This document shows positions 1 to 41,070 of a DNA stretch of 64,000 nt, one piece after another (positions within the stretch are counted from its first letter, which is position 1; the number at the start of each line of letters is the position of its first letter). This DNA is from Adineta ricciae (taxonomy: Eukaryota; Rotifera; Eurotatoria; Adinetida; Adinetidae). The stretch is from positions 310,001 to 374,000 of the forward strand of contig CAJNOJ010000007.1 in assembly GCA_905250025.1 (NCBI GenBank), written 5' to 3'. A model generated the notes under the pieces. That model saw nothing but the letters and a program-made list of their open reading frames with translations, did not search any database and was not told the origin of the DNA. Made by a program: the position numbers and the translations under genes.

Positions 1-101
1 GTCTTCACCTAAAGAAGAATTCTCGTTCTCTTCCATCCAAATTCCATTGATATCAAAAACAAACCTTCATTTGGATCTCGATCATCTGGCAGCGTAGTCA
101 T
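1..101 (-). CDS. RALBP1: RALBP1-like RhoGAP protein, 5' end only (left copy)
   Basis: This is the allelic copy of the gene that runs rightwards from 38188; only its first exon (65-101) and the first eight bases of exon 2 lie in the window, the rest being beyond position 1. The first residues read MTTLPDDRDPNEG as in the other copy. I start at this Met because an upstream in-frame extension to 203 differs at about five of 34 residues between the arms, whereas everything after MTT is identical, which suggests that the extension is 5' UTR. The 56-bp intron (9-64) has GT-AG ends. See the right-arm copy for function. Confidence 0.8.
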
Positions 102-612
102 AGTTGGCAAAAGTCTAATAGAATAAGTTCGTTGAAATGTATCACATAGTGTTACATTGCATTCCAAGTAAATACAAAATTTGTTATTCTTACCACTAGC
201 CAATCAAGTAAATGTCGCTAGTGTAGTTCAATGTTGGAGAGTTGCGTTTTATTTTTATATATTCAAATGAGTAGAAAAAGAATTTTTAAAATTAGTTTTC
301 CGAAATCAGAATTCTGGAAAAAAGGACAACATGGATGCATGAGCGAATCTTGATTGGTCCATATGTTATTGGTTGCTTGCTTGTTGTACTGCTTTTGATT
401 TCCATGTTTTTTTTTCGTAAAACCTGAACTTCATCGCTGAGAATTGACTCTTTCAGTCATTTAAATTAACACTTCGATTGAGGGAAAATTCCGAGTACGA
501 AGTCTCGAGATTGTCATTGACTGAGATCCATGAAGATTTTCTACGAAATTCGAACATAATATCTAATTTTATTTCTAGATTACATTTCTATTAGTTCTCT
601 TGCAACAACATA
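102..612. promoter_or_regulatory. Divergent intergenic region between RALBP1 and RPL27A (left)
   Basis: About 500 bp separate two divergently transcribed genes, so promoters for both must lie here. A pyrimidine-rich acceptor (ttttatttctag, AG at 577-578) stands 34 nt before the RPL27A start and is conserved in the other arm. It marks either a 5' UTR intron or a spliced-leader addition site. No other gene is visible. Confidence 0.6.
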
Positions 613-1146
613 ATGGCAGCACGTGGATCAGCACGTAATACTCGTTTGAATAAAAAACCCAAAAAGACCAAATTACGTGGTAGGTTAATTCATTCGCTAA
701 ATCCAATTAAGTGATCGTTTTCGAATTTTACCAAAGGTAACGTGTCCCATGGTCATGGTCGTATCGGTAAACATCGTAAGCATCCAGGTGGTCGTGGTAA
801 TGCTGGTGGTCTCCATCACCATCGTACACTCTTCGACAAATATCACCCGGGTTATTTTGGTAAAGTTGGTCAACGTGAATTTCACAAACTCAAAAACCGT
901 CGCTGGTGCCCAACCGTCAATCTTGACCGTCTCTGGTCATTGTTAAGTCAACGTACACAAGCAAAATACTCGGAAGGCGAAGCTGCCGTAACGCCTGTTA
1001 TCAATGTTGTCCGATCGGGCTATTTCAAGGTGTTAGGCAAAGGTGTTCTACCTAAACAACCACTTATCGTAAAGGCCAAATTCTTCTCAAGAACAGCCGA
1101 AGAAAAAATCAAAGCTGCCGGCGGTGCTTGTGTATTAGTTGCATGA
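613..1146 (+). CDS. RPL27A: 60S ribosomal protein L27a (uL15), left copy
   Basis: Component of the large cytoplasmic ribosomal subunit. Two exons, 613-679 and 737-1146, with a 57-bp GT-AG intron, encode about 158 residues against 148 in human. The family hallmark [15 protein letters not shown] follows the conserved NVSHGHG, and the C-terminus [16 protein letters not shown] is nearly identical to vertebrate RPL27A. The basic N-terminus ([17 protein letters not shown]) is slightly longer than usual. ATG 613 is chosen because it opens a short basic exon that splices in phase into the conserved domain; the open frame starting at 742 is only the second exon. Compared with the right copy, Ile replaces Val in GRIGKH and Thr replaces Ser in CPTVN, both conservative. 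Confidence 0.97.
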
Positions 1147-2052
1147 GACATTTCAATATCTTTTGTCTCGCAGAAAAGAAGGAAAAATTAAATAAATAAA
1201 TTATCATCATCGTTTTTCGTTTGGTATTTCAACACGAACTGCTTATCTCGTTCCTTTCCTCTTCGAATAGGAAAATCTTTTATTTAAATGAACACTCATC
1301 AGAGAACAAAGTATATGAACGTGAAGTGCTATCAATTAGCCATGAAATACAACTCTAGTAATCAACGTTCGTATCTGTTCTATGCGCATAGTTGAAGTAT
1401 AAACATTATTTGTGTGAACAAGTTAGTACAAAGCAGATAGACAAGCACATACATTTTCGAAATTCATTCATTCATTGGAGAATTTCTTCTACTATATGTA
1501 AGATTTTATTTCTTGTTTGGTTATATGAATACATGAAGAGAAGAAAAGACCACGACAGTTGATAATAATTGTTAATGTAGTTTTCATATCAAAAGAAAAC
1601 GAGAGAAAACAACAAGAATAAATCTCACTAATTTCAACTAAGAAGTTCTGCTTGCTCCTTGATATAGATCAAATCAATAACAAAACACGTATACATGTGT
1701 AAACGATCAACAACAAATGACTTTATCACACGAGTATTATATAAGAGAAGAAAATCAACTCACAAAGATAGAGACAGCAAGAGAGAGAGAGAAAGAAAGA
1801 AAGAGATACAAAAAACACCGATCTATGAGAAGAAGAGAATAAAATGGATTTTGGAAAGAAATACTTGGTCTATGGCAGAGAGGGATCAGTGTATGCAGTA
1901 GAAAATAAAAACTCGTTTACTATTTTTGACGAGAAAACCAAATATGTGCGTTCGAGCAAATCATATAGAGGACATTTAGACGCGTCCAAGCGTAGTACAA
2001 TGATATTTTAGTGATTATATTGTCCAGGTACTAGTTAGAAAATAACAACGAG
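1147..2052. other. Convergent 3' intergenic region (left)
   Basis: RPL27A and the ataxin-1-like gene end towards each other here, so this stretch holds both 3' UTRs. An aataaa-type signal occurs just after RPL27A (aattaaataaataaat near 1186-1201). A GA-rich tract lies at about 1765-1810. No further gene is visible; the 68-codon frame at 1695-1901 is low complexity. Confidence 0.6.
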
Positions 2053-3027
2053 CTACTCATTAGATATTTTGTGACGTTTATTTGATGTTGCCGTGGCAGA
2101 AGCCGACATTTGCCCGTTGATATACCTTCCGACCAAACACTTCGTGGGTGACAGTTGACTGTAATCTGGTTTATCACTTGCTTTTGTTGGCAGAACTTTT
2201 TGCTGTTCGGTCACAGCGATAATAATGTCACCACACTCTAATTGTCGACACTTTAAACCACATCGATGATATGTATGTTCAGGGGATATCGATGACCAGC
2301 ATGAATGCTGATGAACAAAAAATGGCATTTCGGGTTGCACTTGATAAGTTATCTGAAATTGAACGTGATTGAAGTGAAATAAAATGCCACTATTAAGCGT
2401 ACTGTTTTGTCAATTTCATCGATTGAAAAACGTAATTCTGTTTTACCAGTTGTTTTATCTATCGCCCCAATGTGTTCCACCCGTGCTAGAATGCTACATA
2501 AAAGAATGAATCGTTTTGTTTTTTCGAAGATTCTGAATACATTACCTTGAATATTGTTGATTTCGTTTAGCACTTGTCAGAAAATCGTTGGTCGTCAATT
2601 GTTGAATATTCTTCGGTTCACCTGAATCTAAATTAACTAATGTTTCGTGATGAAATTTATTTAGAAAGATTTCATCATCGATTTGTTGCTGTGAAGGTTT
2701 GGGTAATAAACGAGGACAATATTGATGAAATGATCCATTCCGTGGATGATAATCAGTCGGTGAATTATCTGACAATTGATCATTCGTCACTGTCGGCCCA
2801 AAAAATCGTTGATAATTCAAAGTACGAAGTAGATCGATGTAATTCAATGATGCTGCAGAGGCTGATGCAAGGTCAGGGTAGGAAAAATGATAATTCGAAT
2901 TAGATCGAGCTAGACTTTGTGCAGACACATGTTGATTCATAGCTAAATTGGGATTTGAACCACCACGAACAAATCCCGACGATGTTAATGGTATTTCACT
3001 CGTTGTGTGTGTTGTAGATGGATGCAT
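2053..3027 (-). CDS. ATXN1: Ataxin-1-like protein with AXH domain, left copy
   Basis: AXH-domain proteins (ataxin-1, ataxin-1-like/BOAT1) are nuclear transcriptional co-repressor partners; the AXH fold mediates dimerisation and binds Capicua and other factors. Three exons on the minus strand: 2546-3027, 2403-2493 and 2053-2352, with introns of about 50 nt. The AXH domain covers roughly residues 125-255: HHETLVNLDSGEPKNIQQL, then TTNDFLTSA, RVEHIG, MPFFVHQHSCWSSISPE (matching PFFVFGQGWSS.CPE of ataxin-1) and LECGDIIIAVT. The N-terminal ~120 residues are Ser/Asn-rich with no polyglutamine tract. At about 290 residues it is far shorter than human ataxin-1 (~815). The C-terminal tail ends SNKRHKISNE, with a KRHK that could serve as nuclear-localisation signal. 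Confidence 0.85.
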
Positions 3028-4219
3028 CTAGTTTGACTTATCTAATCACTCCGTATTGTTTGTTCCACGTACTATAAGAGAAGAAGAAAAAAAAAAGAAC
3101 TTGCTTTTTTCACTATAAAGAAGAGAGGGGCTTGAAAAACTACGTAATATACTCTACTCTCACTAGTTGATGGCTTCCTGTGCCGATTGACAGACGAATA
3201 GTCAACGAAAAACGGGATTCTCTCGAAGGAAAAGACAGGGGGAAAAAAGAGAATGAGAAGAAATAAAAGACATGCTTTGTAATATATTGATATATATATA
3301 TATCGATGACTCTTATAAAAAAAAAACGACCATATGCATACAAGAACATGCACGATCAACAAAGAACAAAATCTACTAGCATTTCATCATTTTCTTCACT
3401 TCACGTTGAATCATAGGTCTTAGTCATATCGAAGTTAAAATTTGGCAAACGTCGACTAGAAAAACAAATTTCTTCTCCCGCGACTATATGAGTTAGTAAA
3501 AAAGAAAATCGACCACTGTCAATTTTCTCTTTCTTATTGACTTAAGATCAATTGACTGACAAGAATATATTTAGCCTTTTACCCTCGATTCTATTCAGAA
3601 GAAAAATAAAAGTAAATAAAACTCAACTTCAGATTCATTTCACTCATTGTGCATATATGGACATCCACACACAGCATACGACTGTGTGTGTGTGTGTGCG
3701 TATATATATAATAATACTAACAGCATCAACATTATTTATCAATTCTCTAATCTTGCAACCCACTTACCTTAGCTTCTTTGACATTTGCTTGCTACTTGTA
3801 ATATTGACGATGGCAATTCGTAACTACAGAGAAAAAGAGGAAAAGGCCGCCGATGTCGTCGCCGTCGTTACAACTATCTACCCTCATATTTTCTTTTTTC
3901 CTCTTCTCTTTCTTATTTTTTTTTCTTGCCGTATTATTTAACGAAACCAGAGAAAGAACCGATGTACGCACACTTTCACCCACTATTTTTCTCTGCGTAC
4001 TGTAACGTATTCGCCCATTTGTAGTTTACAAACGCGCGTTGGTGCTAAGGGAGTGTGAATAAAAAGAAAGAGAAAAGGTAGTCAAAGAAAGGAAAACATC
4101 AGCTGCAAAACACATGAGAACAATAGTTGTCGATAAGAAGAGAGAAAAAACACTTTGCAAGATTTTATTCCAACGTAGAGAAAATACCACAAACAGAAAA
4201 AGATAAACGAAAAGATATT
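3028..4219. promoter_or_regulatory. Intergenic region between IFT88 3' end and ataxin-1-like 5' end (left region)
   Basis: On the minus strand IFT88 lies upstream and ataxin-1-like begins at 3027 going left, so this 1.2 kb contains the 5' flank of the ataxin-1-like gene and the IFT88 3' flank. It holds purine/pyrimidine-rich tracts, a TA run near 3290-3302 and a GT/TA microsatellite at about 3684-3710. Open frames at 3552-3941 lose frame in the other arm, so they are not coding. Confidence 0.5.
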
Positions 4220-7200
4220 TCAGTCAGGTAAAAGTTCAGCGGCGTCATCGTTGTCATCGAATAGAGCTTTATTTAATTCTTTTCGTCGTATAGCTGTTTT
4301 CGGCCGTCCATCGGCCATATCTTGAGGAAATTCATCAACAAACGGTTGAATCGAAGCTGGTTCTAAAGTTCAATACAGATATCGTTTTCTTGCCTGATCA
4401 ATGAAAAGCCTAGTTGTAATACCTGGGCGAGAGAAAACACCCTCCGTATTGCTCAGATCAATTGGTGTTCGTTTACGACCGCTCGATTGTCGAGTATCAT
4501 CACCTCTGAATTGAGAAACTAGGAGAAGAAACAATGAAGTTAGCAACAAAGCGTTCGTTGTCTTACCATCTTGATCAGCGTGAGAGACCTTTCGACCTTT
4601 GACAATTCCACGACTTTTATCTGCACTTGTTTGTCGCTATAGAGAAACATTCGCGCTTATCTGGTTAAGTTAGAATTTTTAAACGTACTTGAAGTTTGAT
4701 TTCTTTGATTTTATTCGCTTTTTTCAACTCCATTTCATAGTTTTCACGTTCAGGAAGACCAAGATCCGTTGAAATCTTCACCAAAAATTGTATGCCTAGA
4801 TGTTCATTAGCTAATTATATATCTCTTACGACGTCACTAACCCTTGATTAGAAAAAACAGTGTATCCTTATCAATTCTTCAGATAAAATAGAGAGAAGAC
4901 TAACGATATTTGCATATTTCAATTACTTTATCGTGAAGATCAAACATTTTCCTTTTTTTTAAAAACTATAATATAACATTCTTTACGATTGTCCAATATA
5001 TCAAACACTTTGCAGGGAAAAAGAAAAATTCCAGCTAATAATCAGAACGTTCTCACAATATCATATCGCGATCCTTCCGAGAATCTAATAGTAAATTCTA
5101 CTACCAGCCATGTTTCTCACCTTACTCGGCTAAGTAAAGCTAATTGCATCTTGTAAGATATAAAACTTCTTTCTAGGCACAGAGAACATAGATAATTATA
5201 AGAATATGTTATCACAATCATGTCAACACCATCTGGTACTTTTCCTGTCATTAAATTGAATACATTAACTACATTTGTTCGCACTATATTCGAAAAGCAA
5301 AATCTTCTTCGTCGTTGCAAAATATACATTACTTATTAAGCCTTTTGTCTCTAAAAATATGCAACTTTCTATCTACAGACATTCGTAATTATTATCCTAT
5401 GCGTGTTAGCCCACCGTTGACAGATGTTCTTCGTAACCTATCTATATATATCTGACTGAGTAATTTCTATTGAAATTCTTACAGTCGATGTCATCAGGAA
5501 AATGAATATGAATCCATTTATATTTCTCTAGAGCAGCTGTATAATCACCATGACGGCGATAACATGAAGCGACCATTAAATGCCATTTGATTTCTCCAGG
5601 CCTAGAATAAACTTGTTTTTCATTAACGAAAGTCATCAAAATTCTTCAATGTACTTGACTAATGCAGCTTGTGCACAGAATTCGACAGCTTTATCTGGAT
5701 ACTGTGTTTCCAGGTAATAAGATGCAAGCCATTCTAACGTTTCGATGTCACATGGATTATGTCGAAAAGCCTGAACAGAAAGAAGAAGTCAAGTTTTCAC
5801 TAAGTTCGATTTCAAAAAGAATTCATACGTCGAAATAGTACTGTAGCGCCTCTGATTTATCTCCTTGCATGTCTATAACTTCGCCGATTCGTCGGTGTAG
5901 ATGACCGTCGGTTCGATATTTACTTAGCGCTTGTAAATACCTTCAAAAGAAACACATTTGCACACGAATGAACCTTTGTTCAACAGACCAGCTTTTCGCA
6001 TGTTCGGAATCGTTCGTTTGTTGCAAAACTTCTCCCATAAGACAAAATACTTGAGCATTGGCCGGTTGAATGCTTTCGTACTTATGGAGAAGATCTTTAA
6101 CGCGTTGGTACTGATTTGATTTCTGCAATGTTAAAACTAAATATGGAAGAGAGCTTGTTATGTAAATAGCAACGATCATCGAAACATTACTGAGATTATG
6201 AAGAGCTTCTACAGAGCCGGCATCAATATTCAATGCTTCTTCATAATAATACCGTGCTTTGTCATAGTCCTCTTGAGCAAAGCAGCAATTGCCTTTATTC
6301 GTCAATGCTTTGAACAAAACAAAAAGAGCCCAGGTGAATGATAAAAAGACTAGCGTCACATACAAGCTGGATTGAATTTGTCAGTTTTTAAAGCTAAATC
6401 AGCATATTTGTGTGCATTATTCAGATCCTTTTCCTATAGTTGAAATAGTAGATCTCAAATACTATTTTACAGACTAAAACGCTTTAACTTACCAAAAAGT
6501 ACAAAAATGATAAATTCGTTGCCGCTAAGAACAAAACATTCATTCAATCAATTGCTGATCAACTATTTTCGTACATACCTGCACTGGCTAATTTTGCTTC
6601 AGCTTTTTCGAATTCTTTCAATGTTGAAATGGCCTGAAATAGTCATTTCTTTTCTTTATTCTCTTATTTCAATCTCGTTTTGCTTTACTTTGGCAAAATT
6701 GTTTTCTCGTAAATAAGCAATTGCTTTCTGGATCTCCAGACCACTTGCTAATTCGAGATAGGTCGAATTGCGTACTTGATCGATACACCATTCATAACCA
6801 CCAACGAAATCTCCATCGAAATTGTTGCCAACTATTTTCGCAGCGGTGACAATGACATGTTCAGCAAAGCGACGACTAAACAAAACCGAAGATAAAAACA
6901 TTAAACAGTCCAATACTCGTACCGTTTTCGTTCGAATTGCCTCAGCCGATCATCTCTTGTCGCTTCAAGAACCAGGTTGGCTTGTTTATTCTCTTTATCA
7001 ACCTAGATGAAAGCATTTACGCATATAAGCAGTCATTATTGGATTTGAATAATTACTGAAGGCTGGTAATCTTCATCTGAACTGAGAAAAGGTATTTTTA
7101 GAAGATCAGTAAACACTCGTCGAGTTTTATCACGTTGAGTCAATGCATGATAGCACAGCAGAAGATTTAAGCCGCTACGATAATTCGGGCGTTCTTGCAT

Positions 7201-8613
7201 AATCGATTCATATGCCTGAGCGGCTTCAGCATATTGACCCATGAGAATATGTGTCGCCGCTATATTCTCACGAATTTTAAACCTAAAATTGTACATTTGA
7301 CTGTAATGAACCGGAACTGAACAACAAATAACACTTTACTTCAAATCAGCATTTTGTTCGGGGATTTGATCGAGAGCCATGCGATACATTTTTAATGCTT
7401 TAGCATACTGTTTCGAATGTAGATATACATTTCCAATATTAATTCGCCTGTCCATGTCAAAAGATAGGGGATGTATTCGGTTCATTGGAAAAACAACAAG
7501 TTTGACTTACAATCGATGGGGAATAGGTAGGAGTTTGCTTTTTAACAACGTATTATAATGATTCAGTGCTTCGGAATTCATTCCACATTTAGTGTACATA
7601 TTGGCACAATGGAGAATAGTCTAAAAAATAAGTGAATACTGTAGATATATGTTGAGCTTAAGCGAAGTTCTAAAACAGGACGATCACAATCTCCACATTT
7701 ATAAATCGATACGTACAAAGCCAGCCAGACTCATATCTGCTTCGCCAAGGTTCTGCTCTTCACGATAACGTGTCAGACTCTTTTCACTTCGCATAGCTTC
7801 TTCCGCTTTTTCCAACGCCTAACAAAATATTTCTAAACATAGACAACAGATTCAAATATATTCCCTACCAATTTTGTATCATTCTTCTCATCAGCTAGAC
7901 AACTTTCTCCGACGAGATCAATAATTGCCTTCTCCATTTTTCTCACTTTATCTTCACTCCTGAAATATGCAAACCAATATCAACGATTATTTTAAAACTA
8001 AAAATACGCACGTTTCTTCTTTCTTTTCGAATACTGTCGGTCCCGATACGGTCGTGGCACCACTCAAACCACTAGCCATAAAACCTGCGCCTTGAACGGC
8101 AGTTGTTGGCCGTTTTTGACCTGCTGCACCTGTTTGAAGACGGCGAGATGCAGAGCCGGGCGGCGCACCCATCATACCGTTCTGCTGGGCTGCACGTGAT
8201 GCAGTTCCCAATCGTCCCGAAGATGTACCCGGTGGTGGAGCATTTTTCTGCCGACTGAAAACATTCTTCATTTTCGAAAAGAATCCACCCTGAAAGGTAT
8301 TCACATAGACTTTCAAATGTTCGAAAAAATATCATCTCACCTTTTGTGCCGCAGTACCAGGTTGACCAGTCTAAGAAAAATGCGAATATTCTATCGAATT
8401 AATTTTCAAACAGAGAAAAATTCTCTACCGGTGGAGCTCGTCGGCCATGGCTAGTCTTTAGTACTGCTTGTTGCAAATCGTTATCATATTTCAGACTCTT
8501 CAAAGAAAAGCGAATCGTCATGGTCCACTTATCATCAAGATTAGACTTACATCAGTATCTAGCAAAGGATTGTAGTCATTAAAGCCAGAGTACGAATCAG
8601 GTTTATCAGTCAT
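4220..8613 (-). CDS. IFT88: Intraflagellar transport protein 88 (TPR protein), left copy
   Basis: IFT88 is a core subunit of the IFT-B complex that moves cargo along ciliary microtubules and is needed to build cilia. Many short exons encode an N-terminus with SGFNDYNPLLDTD and LKTSHGRRAPP (human: SGYNDYNPI, VRTSHGRRPP), a disordered Gly/Ser/Arg linker, then about ten TPR repeats including YRMALDQIPEQNADLK, LTNKGNCCFAQEDYDKA and WHLMVASCYRRHGDYTAAL, and an acidic C-terminus ending AAELLPD. Introns are mostly about 50-60 nt; one of 687 bp (4796-5482) interrupts the last TPR region. ATG 8613 is chosen by homology and by the splice acceptor 10 nt upstream. The stop codon here is TGA, but TAA in the right copy. 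A FAM47E-like gene lies just upstream on the same strand. Confidence 0.93.
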
Positions 8614-8728
8614 CGTGATTATCTGAAAGAAAAATACCGTCGATATATTTCTTTTAATATTTTTTTTGCTTTATATATGGTTAATTTAAAGATAAAATAT
8701 CTATACATATATAGGATGTCTATGTTTT

Positions 8729-10846
8729 TTAAGATGCGTAGAGTCCTGTGCGGTTCATCTGACCTTCAGTCAGATGATTGCGACGATATTGTTCAACATC
8801 ACTTATTAACTAAACGAAAAGCGAAAGTTTGAACGACTGTATTCTTTAATTAATTATCTATAGTTTACTTTTGGCATTCGAGTGGCGTTTGTTTCCAAAA
8901 GGTAATCTCGGAAAGCATTCACACCGTGTAATGGAGCCAGACGAGAATTCTACAGTGAATAAAAACAATGCAGGACAATTTTAGCAAAATAATTCACTCT
9001 ATGCCTTACAATCTCTTCTTCGCGTTTACGAGATGTATCTTCTCGTTCAGCTCTAGTGGCTTTTGGGTCAATCAATTCCTCTGTTGTTAATTTACGATGC
9101 CAGAGAGTTTTTGGTAAATACCATGCGCCGTATCGATACTTTTGCGTATGTGGCCGTTGATTGATAAGTGCAGTGGTGATCTCTTTCGCCTTAGCACTAC
9201 CGGAACCCATACGCTATTGGTTCAACTGAATTAATTCATACTCTCAATAACTTCTGGTAAAACTTACCATTTCTGATAGAGTTCCTGTTGGTTGTTGTGG
9301 TTCGGCAATCATTGTGTCTTGTGTGCCATCTCGCAAGTCAACTGGAATCTAGTGAATATCACAACAGAGTCAGATATAGTAAAGATTTGTTCGACGAACT
9401 CGTGTCATTTCCACCACTTTGATTGGTACACTTAACGATGGTTTTGTGTCGTAAGCAGTAGAAAAGAGATTCCTGACTACAGCTGGATCAATATCTGTAT
9501 TTGTTTCTCCGCCTAAATCGTATAACCAGGCACAAAATTGTTCTGATACATGACGTAGTTTTGTTTCCTGTACGGAAAGGAGAATTGAGCGAAGAAAGAA
9601 CAACGAAACTTTTATTACCATAGCTGTAGCTGCTTGTTCATCTTGACTAGGACCTTTTGCACGCTGTTTTTGACGTTGCTTTTCAATATACCATCGGTAA
9701 GGATTCCGTTGTTTTCTATCGTATTCTTCAGCATTCCACTGATTACCAGCATCATCATAAACAACTCCATTGCGAGTAATTCTTGGTGGATTTGGTTTAT
9801 TCTCAGATAATTCCGGTAATTGCTTGCTAGAGTCAATGCGTGCTTTCGTAGCTAAATCATTGGATAACTCACTAATGCCTCTATCATTTACAAATATAGA
9901 TTAGATGGTCACATACAGAACGAGCTAAAGTTTGTATCTTACATTTTCTCTGTTTCTTGAGACGCATGTTCAAAACCACTCTTATCACTTTCAACCGTTT
10001 CAGCTTGCGTTAATCCCTCCATTCCTGACGATAGGAATGTGTCATTCTGTCCATCAACAGACGGAACTGGATCCTCCGCATCGTAACGTAATAGTTCCGC
10101 TTCAAACAATCTTGTCACACGATCGTATGTCTATCGAGATGGAACTTATCATACGCATCGCTGGTAACCACAATACATACTTCAGGTGTTAATACTTTAC
10201 TAAAATGTTCAAAGAAGGCGACTGGATGTTCCAATAAACTTGATATATAATGATCAATAGTTCGTCTTCGTTTTTCTGCAGCAGGTATTTCTCGACTGTA
10301 GTATTTCTGATGTGCACTGAGCCGCGATTGAGCGTTTACTACGCAAGATTTGACTCGGCGCGGCTCAGCTAGTAGTACTGGCCCAAGTCCTTTTTCGGGC
10401 TAAATGATTCAATGTTCAAACAATACTTGCTCAAAGTTCTCATTACCTGTAACATAATATCATCATGGCATGGGGGTAAACCATCGCGAAAATCATCGAG
10501 ACCATCCTTAACAAATTTCCAATTTTTCGTGTTGATATTGCTCGGATATTTCATCCGAATTCGTTCACGGTACCTATAGTGAATAAAAGCAAAGTTTTTC
10601 AATCGATACCATATCTCCGCATTAAATCGCATGCAAGAATTTAGCATAGCAAAAAGTAGCTAATTATATGCATAGAGAATCTATCTCACTTTTCGGAAGA
10701 AGCTGTTTTCCTAGATTTAATTTGACAATTTAGTTTCATAACAAAATAGGAAATATATGACGAAAAATATACCATGGTTGAAATTTCGGTGGCCGACGTC
10801 GATCATCGATAGTTGGTAGAAGAACATATTTCAAATCGTTACTCAT
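8729..10846 (-). CDS. FAM47E-like protein, left copy
   Basis: Multi-exon gene of roughly 500 residues. The N-terminal part contains NWKFVKDGLDDFRDGLPPC, which resembles the FAM47/FAM47E family signature (FVK.GLDDFR.G.PPC), followed by a basic segment (AEKRRRTIDHYISSLLEHP) and a C-terminal domain with FCAWLYDLGGE, FSTAYDTKPSLSVPIKVVE and IPVDLRDGTQDT. FAM47E is reported in mammals to promote histone arginine methylation by stabilising PRMT5; whether that applies here is unknown. The start ATG 10846 opens a short exon (SNDLKYVLLPTIDDRRRPP) that splices in phase into the conserved block. Its stop lies about 115 bp before the IFT88 start, hinting at a shared transcript. Assignment to the family rests on remembered motifs, not a search. 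Confidence 0.7.
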
Positions 10847-25700: not shown

Positions 25701-25756
25701 AATGTAGTTCCGATGGAAGTGACAACTCACAGAAGGCGCTCGTTTTTGCTGACTAG
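22725..25756 (+). CDS. SOXD: SoxD-family HMG-box transcription factor, right copy
   Basis: Allelic copy of 12544-15580 with the same domain order: Ser/Thr-rich N-terminus, coiled coil, PLNLS CtBP motif, Asn/His tracts, SoxD HMG box and acidic tail. Exons that I can place are 22725-22923, 23010-23777, a short one beginning at the TCCCAAACATGAC near 23842, another ending at 24025, 24082-24270, 24970-25325 (HMG box), and two or three short ones to the TAG at 25756. The HMG box is identical in amino acids to the left copy. Differences include Ile for Leu in exon 1, two extra Asn in the Asn tract, a two-codon deletion near QSETK, a GC rather than GT donor at 24026-24027, and TAG instead of TAA as stop. 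Confidence 0.92.
24026..24027 (+). other. SOXD: GC splice donor in right SoxD copy
   Basis: The exon ends CCTTTCGTTGCAG and the intron starts GCAAATC, whereas the left copy has GTAAATC at the same site (complement ending at 14275). GC-AG introns are a known functional minor class, so splicing is probably preserved. Confidence 0.85.
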
Positions 25757-29576: not shown

Positions 29577-29680
29577 ATCCTATATATGTATAGATATTTT
29601 ATCTTTAAATTAACCATATATAAATCAAAAAAAAAATTAAAAGAAATATATCGACGCTATTTTGCTTTCAGATAATCATT
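29577..29680 (+). promoter_or_regulatory. Short gap with splice acceptor between FAM47E-like and IFT88 (possible operon junction)
   Basis: Only 104 bp lie between the FAM47E-like stop and the IFT88 start. The gap ends in tattttgctttcag (AG 29670-29671), a good acceptor with no preceding donor in the gap. The left arm has the same arrangement (acceptor complement at 8623-8624). This is what a trans-splicing site between two operon genes would look like. Confidence 0.55.
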
Positions 29681-32600
29681 ATGACTGATAAACCTGATTC
29701 ATACTCTGGTTTTAATGACTACAATCCTTTGCTAGATACTGATGTAAGTCTAATCTTGATGATAAGGGGACCATAACGATTCGCTTTTCTTTGAAGAGTC
29801 TGAAATATGATAATGATTTGCAACAAGCAGTGCTAAAGACTAGTCATGGCCGACGAGCTCCGCCGGTAAAGAACTGTTTTTTCTTTATTTGAGAATTAAT
29901 TTGATAGAATATTCGCATTTTTCTTAGACTGGTCAACCTGGTACTGCGACACAAAAGGTAAGATGGTATTTTTTCGAACATTTGAAAGTCTATGTGAATA
30001 ACTTTCAGGGTGGATTCTTCTCGAAAATGAAGAATGTTTTCAGTCGGCAGAAAAATGTTCCACCACCGGGTACATCTTCGGGACGATTGGGAACTGCATC
30101 ACGTGCAGCCCAGCAGAATGGTATGATGGGTGCTCCACCCGGCTCAGCATCTCGCCGTCTTCAAACAGGTTCAGCAGGTCAAAAACGGCCAACAACTGCT
30201 GTTCAAGGCGCAGGATTTATGGCTAGTGGTTTGAGCGGTGCCACGACCGTATCGGGACCTACAGTATTCGAGAAGAAAGAAGAAACGTGCGTATTCTTAG
30301 TTTCAAAATAAGCACATCGTTGATATTTGTTTGCGTATTTCAGGACTGAAGATAAAGTGAGAAAAATGGAGAAGGCAATTATTGATCTTGTCGGAGAAAG
30401 TTGTCTCGCTAATGAAAAGAACGATACGAAATTGGTAGGGAATACGTTTGGATTTGTTGTCTATGTTAAGAAATATTTTGTTAGGCGTTGGAAAAAGCAG
30501 AAGAAGCTATGCGAAGTGAAAAGAGTCTGACACGTTATCGCGAAGAGCAAAATCTTGGCGAAGCAGATATGAGTCTGGCTGGCTTTGTACGTATCGATTT
30601 AGAAGTGTGGAGATTGTGGTCGTTCTGTTTTAGAACTTCGCTTAGGCTCAACATATATCCACAGTATTCACTTATTTTTTTAGACTATTCTCCATTGTGC
30701 TAATATGTACACTAAATGTGGAATGAATTCCGAAGCACTGAATCATTATAATACATTGTTAAAAAGCAAGCTCCTTCCTATTTCAAGTCGATTGTAAGTC
30801 AAACTTGTTGTTTTTCGAATGAACTGAATACATTACCTACCTTTTAACATGGATAGGCGAATCAATATTGGAAATGTATATCTACATTCAAAACAGTATG
30901 CTAAAGCATTGAAAATGTATCGCATGGCTCTCGATCAAATTCCCGAACAGAATGCTGATTTGAAGTAAAGCGTTATTTGTTGTTCAGTTCCGATTCATTA
31001 TAGTCAAATGTACAATTATAGATTTAAAATTCGTGAAAATATCGCGGCGACACATATCCTCATGGGTCAATATGCTGAAGCCGCTCAGGCATATGAATCG
31101 ATTATGCAAGAACGCCCTAATTATCGTAGCGGCTTAAATCTTCTGCTCTGTTATCATGCATTGAGTCAACGTGAGAAAACTCGACGAGTGTTTACTGATC
31201 TTCTAAAAATACCTTTTCTCAGCTCGGATGAAGATTATCAGCCTTCAGTAATTACCTAAATCCGACAATGATTGCTTATATGTGTAAATGCATTGATTTA
31301 GGTTGATAAAGAGGATAAACAAGCCAACCTGGTTCTTGAAGCGACAAGAGATGATCGGTTGAGGCAATTCGAACGAAAACGGTACGAATGTTGGGTTGCT
31401 TAATGTTTTTATCTTCAGTTTTGTTTAGTCGTCGCTTTGCTGAACATGTCATTGTCACCGCTGCGAAGATAGTTGGCAATAATTCCGATGGAGATTTCGT
31501 TGGTGGTTATGAATGGTGCATCGATCAAGTACGCAATTCGACCTATCTCGAATTAGCAAGTGGTCTGGAGATTCAGAAAGCAATTGCTTACTTACGAGAA
31601 AATAATTTTGCCAAAGTAAAGTAAAACGAGATTGAAATAAGAGAATAAAGAAGAGAAATGACTATTTCAGGCCATTTCAACATTGAAAGAATTCGAAAAA
31701 GCTGAAGCAAAATTAGCCAGTGCAGGTATGTACGAAAATAGTTGATCAACAATTAATTGGATGAATATTTTCTTCTTAGCGGCAACAAATTTATCATTTC
31801 TGTACTTTTTGGTAAGTGGAATCATTTTTTCAATATTAAATATTATTTGAAATATACTATTTCAACTACAGGAAAAGGATCTGAATAATGCACATAAATA
31901 TGCTGATTTAGCTTTAAAAACTGACAAATTCAATCCAGCTTGTATGTAACGCTAGTCTACTATCATTGACCTGTTTTTGTTTTGTTTTGTTCAAAGCATT
32001 GACGAATAAAGGCAATTGTTGCTTTGCTCAAGAGGATTATGACAAAGCACAATATTATTACGAAGAAGCGTTAAACATTGATGCCGGCTCTGTAGAAGCT
32101 CTTCACAATCTCAGTAATGTTACGATGATCTTTGCTATTTGTATAACAAGCTTTCTTCCATATTTAGTTTTAACATTGCAGAAATCCAATCAATATCAAC
32201 GCGTTAAAGATCTTCTCCATAAGTACGAAAGCATTCAACCGGCCAATGCTCAAGTATTTTGTCTTATGGGAGAAGTTTTGCAACAAACGAACGATACCGA
32301 ACATGCGAAAAGCTGGTCTGTTGAACAAAGGTTCATTCATGTACGAATGTGTTTCTTTTGAAGGTATTTACAAGCGCTAAGTAAATATCGAACCGACGGT
32401 CATCTACATCGACGAATCGGCGAAGTTGTAGACATGCAAGGAGATAAATCAGAGGCGCTACAGTACTATTTCGATGTATGAATTCTTTTTGAAATCGAAC
32501 TTAGTAAAAAACTTTACTTTTTCTTTATGTTAAGGCTTTTCGACATAATCCATGTGACATCGAAACGTTAGAATGGCTTGCATCTTATTACCTGGAAACA

Positions 32601-34080
32601 CAGTATCCAGATAAAGCTGTCGAATTCTGTGCACAAGCTGCATTAGTCAAGTACATCGAAAGAATTTCGACGACTTACGTTAATGAAAAACAAGTTTATT
32701 TATTCTAGGCCCGGAGAAATCAAATGGCATTTAATGGTCGCTTCATGTTATCGTCGTAGTGGTGATTATACAGCTGCTCTTGAGAAATATAAATGGATTC
32801 ATATTCATTTTCCTGATGACATCGATTGTAAGAATTTCAATACAAATTACTCAGTCAGATATACATGTATAGATAGATAGATAGATAGACAGGTTACGAA
32901 GAACATCTATCAATGGCGGGGTAACACGCATAGGATAATAATTGCATATTTTTAGAAAGAAAAGACTTAATAAGTAATGTATATTATGACGGAGAAGATT
33001 TTCATTTTTGAATATAATGCGAACAAATGTAGTTAATGTATGCAATTTAATGACAGGAAAAGTACCAGATGGTGTTGACATGATTGTGATAACATATTCT
33101 TATAGTTATTTATGTTCTCTGTGCCTAGAAAGAAGTTTTATATCTCACAAGATGCAATTAGCTTTACTTAGCCGAGTAAGGTGAGAGACATGTCTGGTGG
33201 TACAATTTATTATTAGATTTTCCTAAAGATGGCGATATGATATCGTGAGAATGTTCTCATTACTAGCTGGAATTTTTCTTTTTCCCTGCAAAGTGTTTGA
33301 TATATTCGACAATCTTGAAGAATGTTATATTATAGTTTTAAAAAAAGGAAAATGTTGGATCTTCGTGATAAAGTAATTGAAATATGAAAATATGATTCAT
33401 CTTCTCTCTATTTTATCTGCAGAATTGATAAGGATACACTGTTTTTTTCTAATCGAGGGTTAGTGACGTCGTAAGAGATATATAATTAGCTAATGATCAT
33501 CTAGGTATACAATTTTTGGTGAAGATTTCCACGGATCTTGGTCTTCCTGAACGTGAAAACTACGAAATGGAGTTGAAAAAAGCGAATAAAATCAAGGAAA
33601 TCAAACTTCAAGTACGTTTAAAAGTTCTAACTTAACCAGATAAGAGCGAATGTTTCTCTATAGCGACAAACAAGCGCAAGTAAAAGTCGTGGAATTGTCA
33701 ACGGTCGAAAGGTCTCTCACGCTGATCAAGATGGTAAGACAACGAACGCTTTGTTGCTAACTTCATTGTTTCTTCTCCTAGTTTCTCAATTCAAAGGCGA
33801 TGATACTCGACAATTGAGTGGTCGTAAACGAACACCAATTGATCTGAGCAATACGGAGGGTGTTTTCTCCCATCCAGGTATTACAACTAGGCTTTTCATT
33901 GATCAGGCAAGAAAACGATATCTGTATTAAACTTTAGAACCAGCTTCGATTCAACCGTTTGTTGATCAATTTCCTCAAGATATGGCCGATGGACGACCGA
34001 AAACAGCTATACGACGAAAAGAATTAAACAAAGCTTTATTCGATGACAACGAGGACGCTGCTGAACTTTTACCTGACTAA
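29681..34080 (+). CDS. IFT88: Intraflagellar transport protein 88, right copy
   Basis: Allelic copy of 4220-8613, intact. The N-terminal exon reads MTDKPDSYSGFNDYNPLLDT. The Gly/Ser/Arg-rich segment (TSSGRLGTASRAAQQNG) corresponds to the disordered N-terminal region of IFT88. TPR repeats follow from about 30690 (LHCANMYTKCGMNSEALNHY) to 32827 (YKWIHIHFPDDID). A 677-bp intron (32828-33504) separates the last TPR from FLVKISTDLGLPEREN, which matches the human RFLVRLCTDLGLKD. The tail contains RGIVNGRKVSHADQ and RPKTAIRRKELN (human: RPKTAAKKR) and ends AAELLPD with TAA. Protein length is close to the human protein. Differences from the left copy are scattered conservative replacements. Confidence 0.94.
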
Positions 34081-35279
34081 AATATCTTTTCGTTTATCTT
34101 TTTCTGTTTGTGGTATTTCTCTACGTTGGAATAAAATCTTGCAAAGTGTTTTTTTCTCTCATCTTATCGACAACTATTGTTCTCATGTGTTTTGCAGCTG
34201 ATGTTTTCCTTTCTTTGACTACCTTTTCTCTTTCTTTTTTTCACACTCCCTTAGCACCAACGCGCATTTGTAAACTACAAATGGGCGAATACATTACAGT
34301 ACGCAGAGAAAAATAAGGGGTGAAAGTGTGCGTACATCGGTTCTTTTTCTGGTTTCGTTAAATAATACGGCAAGAAAAAAAAATAAGAAAGAGGAGAGGA
34401 AAAAAGAAAATATGAGGGTAGATAGTTGTAACGACGACGACGACATCGGCGGCCTTTTCCTCTTTTTCTCTGTAGTTACGAATTGCCATCGTCAGTATTA
34501 CAAGTAGCAAGCAAATGTCAAAGAAGCTAAGGTAAGTGGGTTGCAAGATTAGAGAATTGATAAATAATGTTGATGCTGTTAGTATTATTTTATATATATA
34601 TATAAGCACACATACACACACACAGTCGTATGCATGTGTGGATGTCCATATATGCATATTGAATGAAATGAATCTGAAGTTGAGTTTCATTTACTTTTAT
34701 TTTTCTTCTGAATAGAATCAAGGGTAAAAAGCTAAATATATTCTTGTCAGTCAATTGATCTTAAGTCAATAAGAAAGAGAAAATTGACAGTGGTCGATTT
34801 TCTTTTTTACTAACTCATATATTCGCGGGATAAGAAATTTGTTTTTCTAGTCGATGCTTGCCAAATTTTAACTATGATATGACTAAGACTTGTGATTCAA
34901 CATGAAGTCGAATAATGACGAAATGCTAGTAGATTCTGTTCTTTGTTGATCGTGCATGTTTTTATATGCATATGCTCGTTTTTTTCATGAGAGTCATCGA
35001 TATATATATATATATATATCAATAGAGTACAAAGCATGTCTTTTATTCCTTCTCATTCTCTTTTTTCCCCTGTCTTTTCCTTCGAGAAAATCCTGTTTTT
35101 CGTTGACTATCTGTCTGTCAATCGGCACAGGAAACCATCAACTAGTGAGAGCAGAGTATATTACGTAGTATTTCAAGCCCTTCCCTTCTTTCTAGTGAAA
35201 AAAGCAAGTTCTTTTTTTTTCTTCTTTTCTTATAGTACGTGGAACAAACAATACGAAGTGATTAGATAAGTCAAACTAG
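34081..35279. promoter_or_regulatory. Intergenic region between IFT88 and ataxin-1-like (right)
   Basis: Mirror of 3028-4219. IFT88 3' flank followed by the 5' flank of the ataxin-1-like gene. An acceptor-like ttcttttcttatag (AG 35234-35235) and a second AG directly at 35278-35279 precede the ATG at 35280. Microsatellites TA and CA lie near 34592-34624 and TA near 35001-35019. No gene is supported. Confidence 0.5.
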
Positions 35280-36254
35280 ATGCATCCATCTACAACAATC
35301 ACAACTAGTGAAATGCCATTAACATCGTCGGGATTTGTTCGCGGTGGTTCGAATCCCAATTTAGCTATGAATCAACATGTCGCTGCACAAAGTCTAGCTC
35401 GATCTAGTTCGAATTATCATTTTTCCTATCCTGACCTTGCATCAGCCTCTGCAGCATCATTGAATTACATTGATCTACTTCGTACTTTGAATTATCAACG
35501 ATTTTTTGGGCCAACAGTGACGAATGATCAATTGTCAGATAATTCACCGACTGATTATCATCCACGGAATGGATCATTTCATCAATATTGTCCTCGTTTA
35601 TTACCCAAACCTTCGCATCAACAAATCGATGATGAAATCTTTCTAAATAAATTTCATCATGAAACAATAGTTAATTTAGATTCAGGTGAACCGAAGAATA
35701 TTCAACAATTGACGACCAACGATTTTCTAACAAGTGCTAAACGAAATCAACAATACTCAAGGTAATCTATTCAGAATCCTCAGAAAAAAACAACGACTCA
35801 TTCTTTTATGTAGTATTCTAGCACGGGTGGAACACATCGGCACGATAGATAAAACAACTGGTAAAACAGAATTACGTTTTTCAATCGATGAAATTGACAA
35901 AACAGTACGTCTAATGACTACATTTTATTTCACTTCAATGTCGTTCAATTTCAGATAACTTATCATGTGCTACCCGAAATGCCGTTTTTTGTTCACCAAC
36001 ATTCGTGCTGGTCATCGATATCTCCTGAACATACATATCATCGATGTGGTTTAAAGTGTCGACAATTAGAATGTGGTGATATTATTATCGCTGTGACCGA
36101 ACAGCAAAAAGTTTCGCCAACAAAAATAAGTGATAAACCAGATTACAGTCAATTGTCACCCACGAAGTGTTTGGTCGGAAGGTATATCAACGGACAAATG
36201 TCGGCTTCTGCCACAGCAACATCAAATAAACGTCACAAAATATCTAATGAATAG
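35280..36254 (+). CDS. ATXN1: Ataxin-1-like protein with AXH domain, right copy
   Basis: Allelic copy of 2053-3027. Exons 35280-35761, 35814-35904 and 35955-36254, with 52-bp and 50-bp introns that keep phase. The AXH domain is retained (LVNLDSGEPKN equivalent IVNLDSGEPKN, TTNDFLTSAKRN, GKTELRFSIDEIDKT, MPFFVHQHSCWSSISPE, CGDIIIAVTEQQK). Replacements relative to the left copy are mostly in the disordered N-terminus (TITTSEMPL versus THTTSEIPL) and near the end (KVSPTKISDKP versus KVLPTKASDKP), which fits relaxed constraint outside the AXH fold. Stop TAG at 36252-36254. No polyglutamine tract and no second conserved domain are visible. Confidence 0.85.
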
Positions 36255-37143
36255 CTCGTTGTTGTTTTCTAACTAGTACTTGGACAATCTAATCGCTAAA
36301 ATGTCATTGTACTACGCTTGGACGCGTCTAAATGTCCTCTATATGATTTGCTCGAACGCACATATTTGTTTTTCTCGTCAAGAATAGTAAACGAGTTTTT
36401 ATTTTCTATTACATACACTGATCCCTCTCTGCCATAGACCAAGTATTTCGTTCCAAAATCCATTTTATTCTCCTCTTCTCATAGATCGGTGTGTTTTTTT
36501 TTGTATCTCGCTGTCTCTATCTTTGTGAGTTGATTTTCTTCTCTTATATAATACTCGTGTGATAAAGTCATTTGTTGTTGATTGTTTACACATGTATACG
36601 TGTTTTGTTATTGATTTGAACTATATCAAGGAGCAAGCAGAACTTTTTAGTTGAAATCAGTGAGATTTATTCTTGTTGTTTTCTCTCGTTTTCTTTTGAT
36701 ATGAAAACTACATTAACAATTATTATCAATTGTCGTGGTCTTTTCTTCTCTTCATGTATTCATATAACCAAACAAGAAATAAAATCTTACATATAGTAAA
36801 AGAAATTCTCCAATGAATGAATGAATGAATTTCGAAATGTATGTACATGTCTTTATGCTTTGGACTCACTTGTTATTACAAGTAATTTTATACTTCAACT
36901 ATGCGTACAGAACGAATATGAACGTTGATGATTAGAGTTGTATTTCATGGCTAATGGATAGCACTTCACGTTCATTTACTTTGTTCTCTGATGAGTGTTC
37001 ATTTAAATAAAAGATTTTCCTATTCGAAGAGGAAAGGAACGAGATAAGTAGTTCGTGTTGAAATACCAAACGAAAAACGATGATGATAATTTATTTATTT
37101 AATTTTTCCTTCTTTTTTGTGAGACAAAAGATAGTGAAATGTC
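36255..37143. other. Convergent 3' intergenic region (right)
   Basis: Mirror of 1147-2052: 3' flanks of the ataxin-1-like and RPL27A genes, about 0.9 kb, AT-rich, with a GAAT repeat at about 36811-36832. No gene seen. Confidence 0.6.
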
Positions 37144-37677
37144 TCATGCGACTAATACACAAGCACCGCCGGCAGCTTTGATTTTTTCTTCGGCTGTTCT
37201 TGAGAAGAATTTAGCCTTTACGATAAGTGGTTGTTTAGGTAGAACACCTTTGCCTAACACCTTGAAATAGCCCGATCGGACAACATTGATAACAGGTGTT
37301 ACGGCAGCTTCGCCTTCCGAGTATTTAGCTTGTGTACGTTGACTTAACAATGACCAGAGACGGTCAAGATTGACGGATGGGCACCAACGACGGTTTTTGA
37401 GTTTGTGAAATTCACGTTGACCAACTTTACCAAAATAACCTGGATGGTATTTGTCGAAGAGGGTACGATGGTGATGAAGACCACCAGCATTACCACGACC
37501 ACCCGGATGCTTACGATGTTTACCGACACGACCATGACCATGGGACACGTTACCTTTGGAGAAATTCGAAAACGATCACTTGATTGGATTTAACAAATGA
37601 ATGAACTTACCACGTAATTTGGTCTTTTTGGGTTTTTTATTCAAACGAGTATTACGTGCTGATCCACGTGCTGCCAT
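37144..37677 (-). CDS. RPL27A: 60S ribosomal protein L27a (uL15), right copy
   Basis: Allelic copy of 613-1146, on the minus strand: exon 1 37611-37677 and exon 2 37144-37553 with a 57-bp intron. Encodes the full family hallmark ([53 protein letters not shown]). Both copies appear functional; apart from Val for Ile and Ser for Thr the proteins are the same, so nearly all nucleotide differences are synonymous. A conserved acceptor-like tatttctag stands about 35 nt upstream of the start. Confidence 0.97.
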
Positions 37678-38187
37678 TATGTTGTTGCAAGAGAACTAAT
37701 AGAAATGTAATCTAGAAATACAATTAGATTTTATGTTCGAATTTCGTAGAAAATTTTCGTGTATCTCGATCAATGACAATCTCGAGATTTTGTACTCGAA
37801 ATTTTCTCTCAATCGAATTGTTAATTTAAATGACTGAAAGGGTCAATTTTTAGCGATGAAGTTTAGGTTTTACAAAAAAAAACATGGAAATCAAAAGCAG
37901 TACAACAAGCAAGCAACCAATACCGTATGGGCCAATCAAGATTCGCTCATGCATCCATGTTGTCCTTTTTTTTGAATTCTGATTTCGAAAAACTAATTAT
38001 ACAAAATTCTTTTTCTATTCATTTGTATATATAAAAATAAAACTCAACTCTCCAACATTGAACTACACTAGCGACATTTATTTGATTGGTTAGTGGTAAG
38101 AATAACAAATTTGGTATTTACTTGGAATGTAATGTAACACTATGTGATACATTTCAACAAACTTATTCTATTAGACTTTTGTCAACT
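37678..38187. promoter_or_regulatory. Divergent intergenic region between RPL27A and RALBP1 (right)
   Basis: Mirror of 102-612, about 0.5 kb between divergent genes. Acceptor-like sites stand before both starts: tatttctag on the minus strand for RPL27A and tattctattag (AG 38173-38174) for RALBP1. No other gene seen. Confidence 0.6.
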
Positions 38188-40692
38188 ATGACTACGCTGC
38201 CAGATGACCGAGACCCAAATGAAGGTTTGTTTTTGATATCAATGGAATTGGTTGGAAGAGAAAGAGAATTCTTCTTTAGGTGAAGACGAACGCGATCGTA
38301 AACGAAAATTATTTTCAACAAAATCGAACGCTTCGAAAGAGAAAAGTAGTACATTATTGATTGGTGCTGAAGCAAGTGAAGAAGCATTAACAACTGCGCA
38401 GGACTTCAAAAGTTTGCTAAGACCAAAGAAAAAGAATGGCTTTAAATTAATAAAAACAAAAACGAAAGTTTCATCCGAACAAAAAGAAAGACGGACAAGT
38501 AGCGTGTGAAATGAGTAATAATACAAAATCCAATTCATCTTCGTTTAGGTTTGAAAGATGAAAAACGAAAATCGAAGGCAAATCGTGATAGTATTGCAAG
38601 TACAGCAGGTTTGTTTTACTGCTTTACGGATCGTAGAGTACTTACTGAGTTTTCGTTTAGCTTTAGTCGAACAACTTCGTCTAATACTTGGTCTGTCATT
38701 AGATGAAGCGATTAAGCACAATCCTCTCCAAAATGATGATCTTGCAGTACCACGTTTCCTTGTTGATTGTATTCATATTATTGAACAAGGTATTTCGTTG
38801 ATTTCATTTTGATTAGAATAGTCTGTTGTTCCGATTTTTTTTGAAAAGGTCACGGGCAGGATAATGTGTATCGGCAAGAACCAGTAAAAATCAAACAACC
38901 GGCTGATCTTGAAAACGCTTTAAAACAACCGTTAACACCTGCATTTGCTGTCAGTTTACTAAAACGTTTTCTCAAAGAACTACCTGAACAATTGATTCCT
39001 CCTGAACAAAGCAGTGGGATATTTAAAATAATAAATGATCCAAGTAAGATTTGCATTTCACTTCGAATTTCCTTCAATATCTTTTCATTTTGTTTTTCTT
39101 TAGGTGCTGATGCAACGCGATTCGCTGAAATTCGTAATCTCATTCAGAAGATCTCGAAGCCTAATCGAGATACGATTCGTTTATTATTTCTTCATCTTCA
39201 CGATATTATTCATCGATTTAATACGATGTCACCATCGCAAACACCGTCGTCGAAAAACAGTGACTCATCTTCTATACCTGTTACAATAGCTGCATTGATC
39301 AAGAGTAAAGAACGTACTGTTAAATATCTCATTCAACATGCAACGGATATTTTCGAACGCCCACGAACCTCATCGACATCACGGTATGTTCAATAGAAAA
39401 CTTTTCTTTTCGTAGTAAAACAAAGATTTGATTTATTTTATGCAGAGTTTCATTAATAAAGAATGTTTCACGTTCTTCCCTTCATTCGGAAACGATTGAG
39501 TAAGTAACTTGATGAAAGAAGAATATTGCGTTGTTTACAAATCGTCTTGTAGAGAATTAGAGGCTGAATTAAACAAACAAGAAGCATTACTGAATAGAAT
39601 GCATGAAGAAATGCAACAATCACAGCCAGTCTCATCAACGTACGGGACAACGACACCAACTAATGTAGATAAAGATAAAGAAGAACAATTATGGGCTCAA
39701 CAACGGCTTGTCACAGCATTGAAACGCAAGGTAATTGAAATATTTCCCGAACATGAGTATCATTCTTCTTATTCAAATTCAGATCAAACAAGAAACTCGT
39801 CGGTTGCAACAAAATCGTCTCTCATCCTTTCTTGAACATTCAGCATCAACCACGGCTTGTGCATCCGTTTCTCAATCGAGTAAAATCTTTTTTTTTTCGT
39901 TCTACAAGAAAAACAACTCAAACATATGTATCGATCTTCTTTAGCACCATCGCATCAACCAGAAGTCATCTTAATCGTTAATAAACGCGATGAGGCATCC
40001 AAACACCAACAAACGCCGAGTACAGCGGATGAAACAACGAAAACTACACCTGGTCCGATAAGCCCAAAGCCTGTCCGACAACGTGAACGAAGCGGTGTGG
40101 AAACCGATGATGATGATCTTCTTGCTCAGATACAACGAGCCATGGACGGTACTCCTGGTGTATCTGAAGAAGAATTATTGAAAGAAAAAATCATTGAAGC
40201 ACGTCTTTTAGCTCGATGTAAGCATTCTTTCCTTATGTTTCGTCATTCACGTTCGAATCTTCTAGTGAAAACAATATACAACTCATTTATGAATGAAAAA
40301 GAAAACTTAGCTAAACTAGAACAACAAATGAATGAAAAGCCACTAGATCTATCAAATATAACTCCAGTAATGACAACAACAAGCGCGGATCATGAAACAT
40401 CATCAAGTCAAACTGTAGATATTCTACAAGAACTATTAAATACAATCAAACTAAATAATCAACTAGAGGTATGAGATCGAAGTTGACAGAATAATAGTTC
40501 ATTGCAATATTTCCTTTATTTTAGACAAAAATCGAAGCGATTAAACGTAATATTGAAAATGAAAATGAACGTATTGAAGAATTATGCGTTGACTTACGTT
40601 TCGGAAGATTATCGAGTAAAATTCATCTTCATACCAACACGAATTCGGTCCACTCGCCGGCAAATCCACTTGTTCAAGTGACTAAACTCTGA
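38188..40692 (+). CDS. RALBP1: RALBP1 (RLIP76)-like RhoGAP protein
   Basis: RalBP1 is an effector of Ral GTPases with a RhoGAP domain for Rac/Cdc42 and a role in endocytosis. About eleven exons with ~50-60-nt introns; early ones are 38188-38224, 38280-38498, 38549-38608, 38661-38790 and 38849-39041. Order: Lys-rich N-terminus (RRPKKKNGFKL-type, as in human), RhoGAP domain from about 38700 (VPRFLVDCIHIIEQG, DNVYRQEP, LLKRFLKELPEQLIP), then a coiled coil with LWAQQRLVTALKRK, closely matching human RLWEVQRILTALKRK, the Ral-binding region. The arginine finger in VYRQEP is kept; the later RhoGAP Asn-x(5)-P motif is not recognisable. Two further coiled-coil exons end at TGA 40690-40692. The first bases belong to the inverted repeat, whose left copy is cut by the window. 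Confidence 0.88.
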
Positions 40693-41070
40693 TCTAACTA
40701 ACTTATCTCCAACGTTTGAGAAAATAGTAACTAGCATCATGCAAAACGCGCACACATGCCAAATATCTCGTATGAAAATCCAATTTTGTTTTGTGTCTTC
40801 TTTTGTTCCACTATGAAAGTTTATTTTTCATGCGTATATGTAACTTTGTATAGAAACAAGACTAGCACAATGAAGAAACATAAAGAGTCGTTGTTTTGTT
40901 TTTCGCTTGTTGATCGGCCTTCCTTATTTATATATAAATAGATTCTACATATACTTATGTTTAGCGTGAAGATGTACTTTTGCGTTTGTTTTCCTGATTT
41001 TTGGCCAAAACCCAAATAAATATCAAAATATTTCTCTCCTAAGTACATATATATATATATCATATTGTAG

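What the first reader, a model, noticed from the sequence alone, without database searches (positions are those of the whole stretch)
1..38287. Giant palindrome placing two allele-like copies of a six-gene block on one molecule
Seen: 18.8-kb arms in inverted orientation, same gene order, all shared genes intact, about 4% divergence in a counted ~210-base stretch of RPL27A exon 2, and a 664-bp loop. Established: such allelic palindromes were reported in the first Adineta vaga genome and taken as incompatible with homologous pairing in meiosis; a later chromosome-level assembly did not support that layout. Inference: either a genuine chromosomal palindrome or two haplotypes joined head to head in assembly. 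The left arm is cut at position 1, so the true arm may be longer.
Basis: partly seen in the sequence, partly recalled or inferred. Interest (0 to 1): 0.9.

Follow-up and report, generated by a model that had tools for sequence, protein, structure and literature searches.

The report
Assembly-made palindrome of two alleles
A 49-kilobase mirror-image DNA block in a bdelloid rotifer contig is most likely two versions of one ordinary gene block joined head to head by an assembly error, not a real chromosome palindrome.

Summary
The palindrome is in the sequence. With flanks fetched, the arms are 24.5 kb: window -5688..18832 and 43981..19497, 94.1% identical, loop 664 bp. I judge it an assembly artefact: a short-loop fold-back junction joining two haplotypes. 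The right arm's outer end lies directly beside a single N (43982). The homoeologous contig C19 holds one block, in left-arm orientation, between matches to the left flank and to the post-N sequence, so the inverted right arm is extra. The same assembly has exact fold-backs of like geometry: 106 bp against an N on C19, and 104 and 103 bp at 2 of 18 readable contig starts; 926 overlapping interior windows gave none outside the two known fold-backs. Arm divergence, 4.7%, is about that printed for A. ricciae alleles. The probable source assembly, inferred, came from whole-genome-amplified DNA, a process known for inverted chimeras. Against this: there are no reads to test it, and why the post-N contig was put behind the right arm is unexplained. 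A real inverted duplication keeps about 8%.

The parts
1..18832 (+). left arm (allele-like copy 1); continues outside the window to -5688 (C7:304312)
18833..19496 (.). 664-bp loop, probably the true sequence beyond the block's distal end
   Evidence: full-length match only at C7; last block match to loop end 1968 bp, against 2214 bp between the corresponding anchors on C19
19496..19497 (.). proposed fold-back (chimeric) junction
   Evidence: inferred from the geometry and from the exact fold-backs elsewhere in the assembly
19497..43981 (-). right arm (allele-like copy 2, inverted); extra relative to homoeolog C19
43982..43982 (.). single N directly outside the right arm; probable scaffold join
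43983..44337 (+). start of the post-N sequence, matching C19:460602-460940, that is, beyond the block's distal end
715..1143 (+). RPL27A exon frame, left arm
   Evidence: PF00828, E 2.1e-16
37147..37575 (-). RPL27A exon frame, right arm, 97.9% identical protein
58585..58585 (.). second single N; no fold-back comparable to the others found within 3 kb on either side

Best explanation
The window shows one ordinary heterozygous locus. The true order is probably left flank - block - loop - post-N sequence, on both homologues. A fold-back (inverted chimeric) junction about 0.7 kb beyond the block let the assembler run out along one haplotype, through the loop, and back along the other haplotype in reverse. 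That contig was then joined across a single N to the sequence that really follows the loop. Shown: the arms, the N at the arm's end, the single block on C19, and exact fold-backs at other contig ends. Inferred: that the junction is a DNA-amplification chimera, that the arms are alleles A and B, and the species and assembly (Adineta ricciae ARIC003).
For: Right arm ends at base 43981, next to an N; 3 N in the 244 kb of C7 and C19 read. C19 is collinear with C7 on both sides and has one block; C7's post-N sequence matches C19 beyond the block's distal end, not its proximal end. Fold-backs of the same form: C19:458437-458542 is a 106-bp, 100% inverted copy of C19:457533-457638 against the N at 458543, loop 798 bp; contigs C16 and C17 begin at base 1 with exact inverted copies of 104 and 103 bp, loops 2190 and 1285 bp, 2 of 18 readable starts; of 926 interior control windows (overlapping, both orientations, those with N left out) 4 scored, all inside the two known fold-backs. 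Over the whole arm the genome search lists two copies, both on C7, besides C19 pieces and short matches, while 4.25 kb of left flank and 4 kb of post-N sequence list one copy besides C19 (one further 37-bp match), as expected if the second haplotype was collapsed or removed except where fused into a contig. Arm divergence 4.72%; printed: A. ricciae heterozygosity 5.5% (PMC7953838, passages), and about 4% in Diploscapter 'thus similar to A. ricciae' (PMC5916493, section 9). No palindromes were found in the 2018 A. ricciae assembly. ARIC003: 135.6 Mb, GC 35.5%, DNA whole-genome amplified (PMC7943196, passages). Inverted types averaged 91% of single-end chimeras in two amplified human samples (PMC6515389, passages).
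Against: No reads or coverage could be examined. No N lies at the loop. Exact identity next to the loop is only 35 bp, then small differences, then 361 bp exact, so it is not a plain exact fold-back like the other three; and the longest exact run, 424 bp, lies away from the loop (14476-14899). Short-insert links would not place the post-N contig behind an arm end 24.5 kb from the loop; a longer-range or reference-guided join must be assumed. How ARIC003 was scaffolded is not stated in the section read, and the identity of the assembly is inferred. The N at 58585 has no such fold-back. 16 of 18 readable contig starts have none. Lower divergence near the loop could also come from gene conversion in a real palindrome. 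Single-copy flanks and a two-copy block also fit a real duplication in a collapsed assembly.
Confidence: 0.85

Rival explanations
1. A genuine inverted duplication on one homologue: an inverted copy of the block, perhaps templated on the other homologue during break repair, was inserted between the loop and the post-N sequence; the other homologue keeps a single block.
For: The order flank - block - loop - inverted block - post-N is also what an insertion at that point would give. Lower divergence towards the loop (2.82% against 5.69%) fits gene conversion. Two copies of the block and one of each flank fit it too. It explains why the post-N contig follows the right arm without special assumptions about scaffolding.
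Against: The outer breakpoint would have to coincide with an N join. Exact fold-backs occur at other contig ends of this assembly. No palindromes were found in the 2018 A. ricciae assembly.
Confidence: 0.08
2. An ancient allelic palindrome of the Adineta vaga 2013 type, with homologous copies residing on one chromosome as a stable architecture incompatible with meiotic pairing.
For: Gene order and orientation match the form g1A g2A g3A ... g3B g2B g1B described in PMC5916493 section 9.
Against: The homoeolog has no palindrome of this kind. What follows the right arm is the block's distal neighbour, not the allele of the left flank. A later A. vaga assembly found only a single palindrome (PMC7749112, passage) and the 2018 A. 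ricciae assembly none.
Confidence: 0.03
3. Purely a scaffolding or gap-filling error: a separate haplotig of the second allele was inserted by a scaffolder, without any chimeric molecule.
For: The single N at the outer end and misplacement relative to C19. PMC5916493 section 9 and a PMC7953838 passage warn that scaffolding errors can make false breaks or palindromes.
Against: No N at the loop junction, and exact fold-backs with loops of 0.8-2.2 kb at other contig ends point to fold-back molecules.
Confidence: 0.04

Closest known systems
Allelic palindromes of the first Adineta vaga assembly (Flot et al. 2013, as described in PMC5916493 section 9)
   Same: Collinear homologous gene blocks in inverted order on one scaffold.
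   Different: Here the outer end of one arm is beside an N and the homoeolog shows a single block. A later A. vaga assembly reports only a single palindrome (PMC7749112 passage).
Inverted chimeras of whole-genome (multiple displacement) amplification (PMC6515389 and PMC13265396, passages)
   Same: Inverted copy of nearby sequence across a short loop; exact fold-backs at contig ends of this assembly.
   Different: Here the return path follows the other haplotype, so the arms differ by 4.7% and extend to 24.5 kb.
Gene-converting palindromes of primate Y chromosomes (PMC7953838 passage; arm layout recalled)
   Same: Large inverted arms around a spacer; lower divergence near the spacer here would fit gene conversion.
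   Different: Arms there evolve in concert (same passage); here they differ at about the level printed for A. ricciae alleles.

Membership tests
Bdelloid allelic palindrome (g1A g2A g3A ... g3B g2B g1B) | inverted collinear homologous copies on one scaffold | tested here: met
Bdelloid allelic palindrome (g1A g2A g3A ... g3B g2B g1B) | divergence between arms at the allelic level | tested here: met
   4.72% against 5.5% heterozygosity and about 4% in print
Bdelloid allelic palindrome (g1A g2A g3A ... g3B g2B g1B) | arms physically linked on one chromosome | not testable with these tools
   no reads or Hi-C; the N at the arm end and the single block on C19 speak against it
Fold-back (inverted) amplification chimera carried into an assembly | inverted copy of nearby sequence across a short loop | tested here: met
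   664-bp loop; sister cases with loops of 798, 1285 and 2190 bp
Fold-back (inverted) amplification chimera carried into an assembly | exact identity at the fold-back | tested here: inconclusive
   35 bp exact next to the loop, then small differences, then 361 bp exact; the three sister cases are exact over 103-106 bp
Fold-back (inverted) amplification chimera carried into an assembly | junction absent from unamplified DNA | not testable with these tools
   no reads available

The most novel reading that the evidence does not exclude
A real inter-homologue inverted duplication: during break repair one homologue copied 24.5 kb of the other in inverted orientation next to its own copy, putting both alleles on one chromosome, with later gene conversion near the loop.
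Probability: 0.08. Interest if true: 0.7.

Novelty: not a real feature. Interest (0 to 1): 0.15.

Why it matters
Allelic palindromes were used as evidence of ameiotic evolution in bdelloids. This case shows concretely how one could be made: a short-loop fold-back junction in a heterozygous genome, with the outer arm end beside a scaffold N. It also suggests a cheap screen for such palindromes: check for an N at the outer arm end, for exact inverted copies at contig ends, and for the order in the homoeologous copy.

Tried and rejected
A real palindrome whose arm ends are biological boundaries: rejected as the best reading because the right arm ends beside an N. A transposon or other repeated loop: the loop's only full-length match in the genome is at C7; its 5 other rows are matches of 39-65 bp in its CTT-like low-complexity part. 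Telomeric repeats in the loop: none seen on reading the sequence, no search made. A third allelic copy elsewhere: searches covering the whole left arm list the two C7 copies, C19 pieces and otherwise only matches of 33-219 bp. (10-kb queries) did not list even the query's own place, so I repeated those stretches in shorter pieces (47983-53982 was not repeated). A simple bubble closing at the arm ends: exact identity is only 52 bp at the outer end and 35 bp at the loop, so the exact stopping points are unexplained. The protein search confirmed RPL27A (P0006, 91% identical, named Rotaria sordida) but no name shown among the 120 listed rows (names cut short) reads Adineta ricciae. Literature searches did not turn up, in what I read, a statement on single-N joins or on how ARIC003 was scaffolded; that SSPACE and GapCloser can leave single N is recalled only.

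Full report
What is there. The window is C7:310001-374000 of a genome held as 130.46 Mb in 1033 contigs. Self-comparison shows one large inverted repeat. With flanks added, its arms are -5688..18832 and 43981..19497 in window coordinates, 24.5 kb each, 94.14% identical in BLASTN, around a 664-bp loop. MAFFT gives 23198 matches, 1150 mismatches and 310 gap columns, 4.72% substitutions. Divergence is 0.6% in the 500 bp next to the loop, 2.82% over the nearest 7.5 kb, 5.69% in the middle and 1.21% in the outermost 500 bp. The longest exact run, 424 bp, lies at 14476-14899; the one nearest the loop, beyond a 35-bp exact end piece, is 361 bp.

The right arm stops beside a scaffold mark. The window has two N, at 43982 and 58585. 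The arm match ends at 43981, directly before the first. Three N occur in the 244 kb of C7 and C19 then read.

The homoeologous contig shows the ordinary order. C19 aligns with C7 at about 63-86% in conserved pieces, in the same orientation, from C7:281808 to C7:382128, apart from the right arm and from small reverse matches that come from C19's own fold-back. The left flank and left arm match C19:415563-458315 (+). The post-N sequence matches from C19:460602 (+). The right arm matches the same C19 block as the left arm, in reverse. So C19 reads flank - one block - post-N, and the right arm is an inverted extra. The C7 distance from the last block match to the loop end is 1968 bp; the corresponding C19 anchors are 2214 bp apart, N and fold-back tail included. 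This suggests, without proving it, that the post-N sequence belongs almost directly after the loop.

Copy number. Searches of the genome with pieces that cover the whole left arm list two copies, both on C7, then C19 pieces and matches of 33-219 bp. The 4.25 kb of left flank and the 4 kb of post-N sequence searched list one copy and C19 (one search also one 37-bp match). Two 10-kb queries failed to list their own place and were not used for this. The search scores only the best candidates, so these are statements about its lists.

Fold-backs recur in this assembly. Just before the N at C19:458543, bases 458437-458542 are a 100% inverted copy of 457533-457638 across a 798-bp loop. I then read the first 2500 bases of contigs C1-C20. 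Two of the 20 begin with N and gave no test; of the other 18, C16 and C17 begin at base 1 with exact inverted copies of 104 and 103 bp across loops of 2190 and 1285 bp, and 16 have none. Of 926 interior control windows (overlapping, both orientations, those with N left out), 4 had an exact inverted repeat of 25 bp or more near the end; by position three lie in this palindrome and one is the C19 fold-back. Of the three N sites, only C19 shows an exact fold-back against the N; C7:353982 is the palindrome's own end, and C7:368585 has none. The near-constant length of 103-106 bp looks like an assembler setting (inference).

Which genome. Window base counts give 35.6% G+C. PMC7943196 (passages) lists A. 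ricciae ARIC003 at 135.6 Mb, 4302 scaffolds, GC 35.5%. The 2018 A. ricciae assembly has 174.5 Mb and a longest scaffold of 1675.3 kb (PMC5916493 passages), whereas C1 here is 1697 kb. ARIC003, with short scaffolds left out, is therefore my inference. Its DNA came from about 200 animals and was whole-genome amplified (passage). PMC6515389 (passages) reports that inverted chimeras averaged 91% of single-end chimeras in two amplified samples; PMC13265396 (passages) reports pervasive palindromic reads after amplification of tardigrade DNA.

Mechanism, as inferred. A fold-back molecule links the loop's end to the block on the opposite strand. Near the loop the haplotypes are almost identical, so the path can leave on the other allele and run back through it for 24.5 kb. 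The second allele then survives removal of redundant haplotypes because it sits inside a long contig. How the post-N contig came to be placed behind the right arm's outer end is the weak point: a long-range or reference-guided join would do it, but I found no statement of the method for ARIC003 (section 17 read).

Contents of the block. Frames with Pfam matches in the left arm: RPL27A (715-1143 +), an AXH module (2056-2409 -), TPR repeats (5946-6380 -) and an HMG box (12939-13442 -); 5 of the 9 block frames tested had no family at E 0.01. The stop-to-stop frames include intron sequence, so they do not establish intact genes.

Against known work. PMC5916493 (section 9) counted 23 palindromes in the 2013 A. 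vaga assembly and none in A. ricciae, and noted that many collinearity breaks span scaffold gaps. PMC7749112 (passage) found only one palindrome in a later A. vaga assembly. PMC7953838 (passages) found none in three other bdelloids and warned of false palindromes from scaffolding. The present case fits that warning.

Verdict. Observation confirmed with corrected bounds; biological reading not supported. Artefact with fold-back 0.85, pure scaffolding error 0.04, genuine inverted duplication 0.08, stable allelic palindrome 0.03.

Noticed in passing
window 51576-57460 (-): Two tandem gene copies alike at about 74% (51817-52110 against 57030-57323); a frame between them, 55401-56081, matches Transglut_core.
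   Followed up: partly
C7:301417-301975 (window -8583 to -8025), left of the window: A 132-bp tandem repeat with copies 89-93% alike, inside a long frame that reads like repeated cysteine-rich EGF-type modules (label from inspection, no family search).
   Followed up: no
C7:328833-353982 and C19:458315-460602: Both homoeologs have an N and a fold-back tied to the same intergenic stretch beyond the block, with CTT/poly-T low complexity; a local property may hamper amplification or assembly there.
   Followed up: partly
starts of contigs C16 and C17 (L050, L051): Exact inverted copies of 104 and 103 bp at base 1 of the contigs, likely fold-back artefacts.
   Followed up: yes
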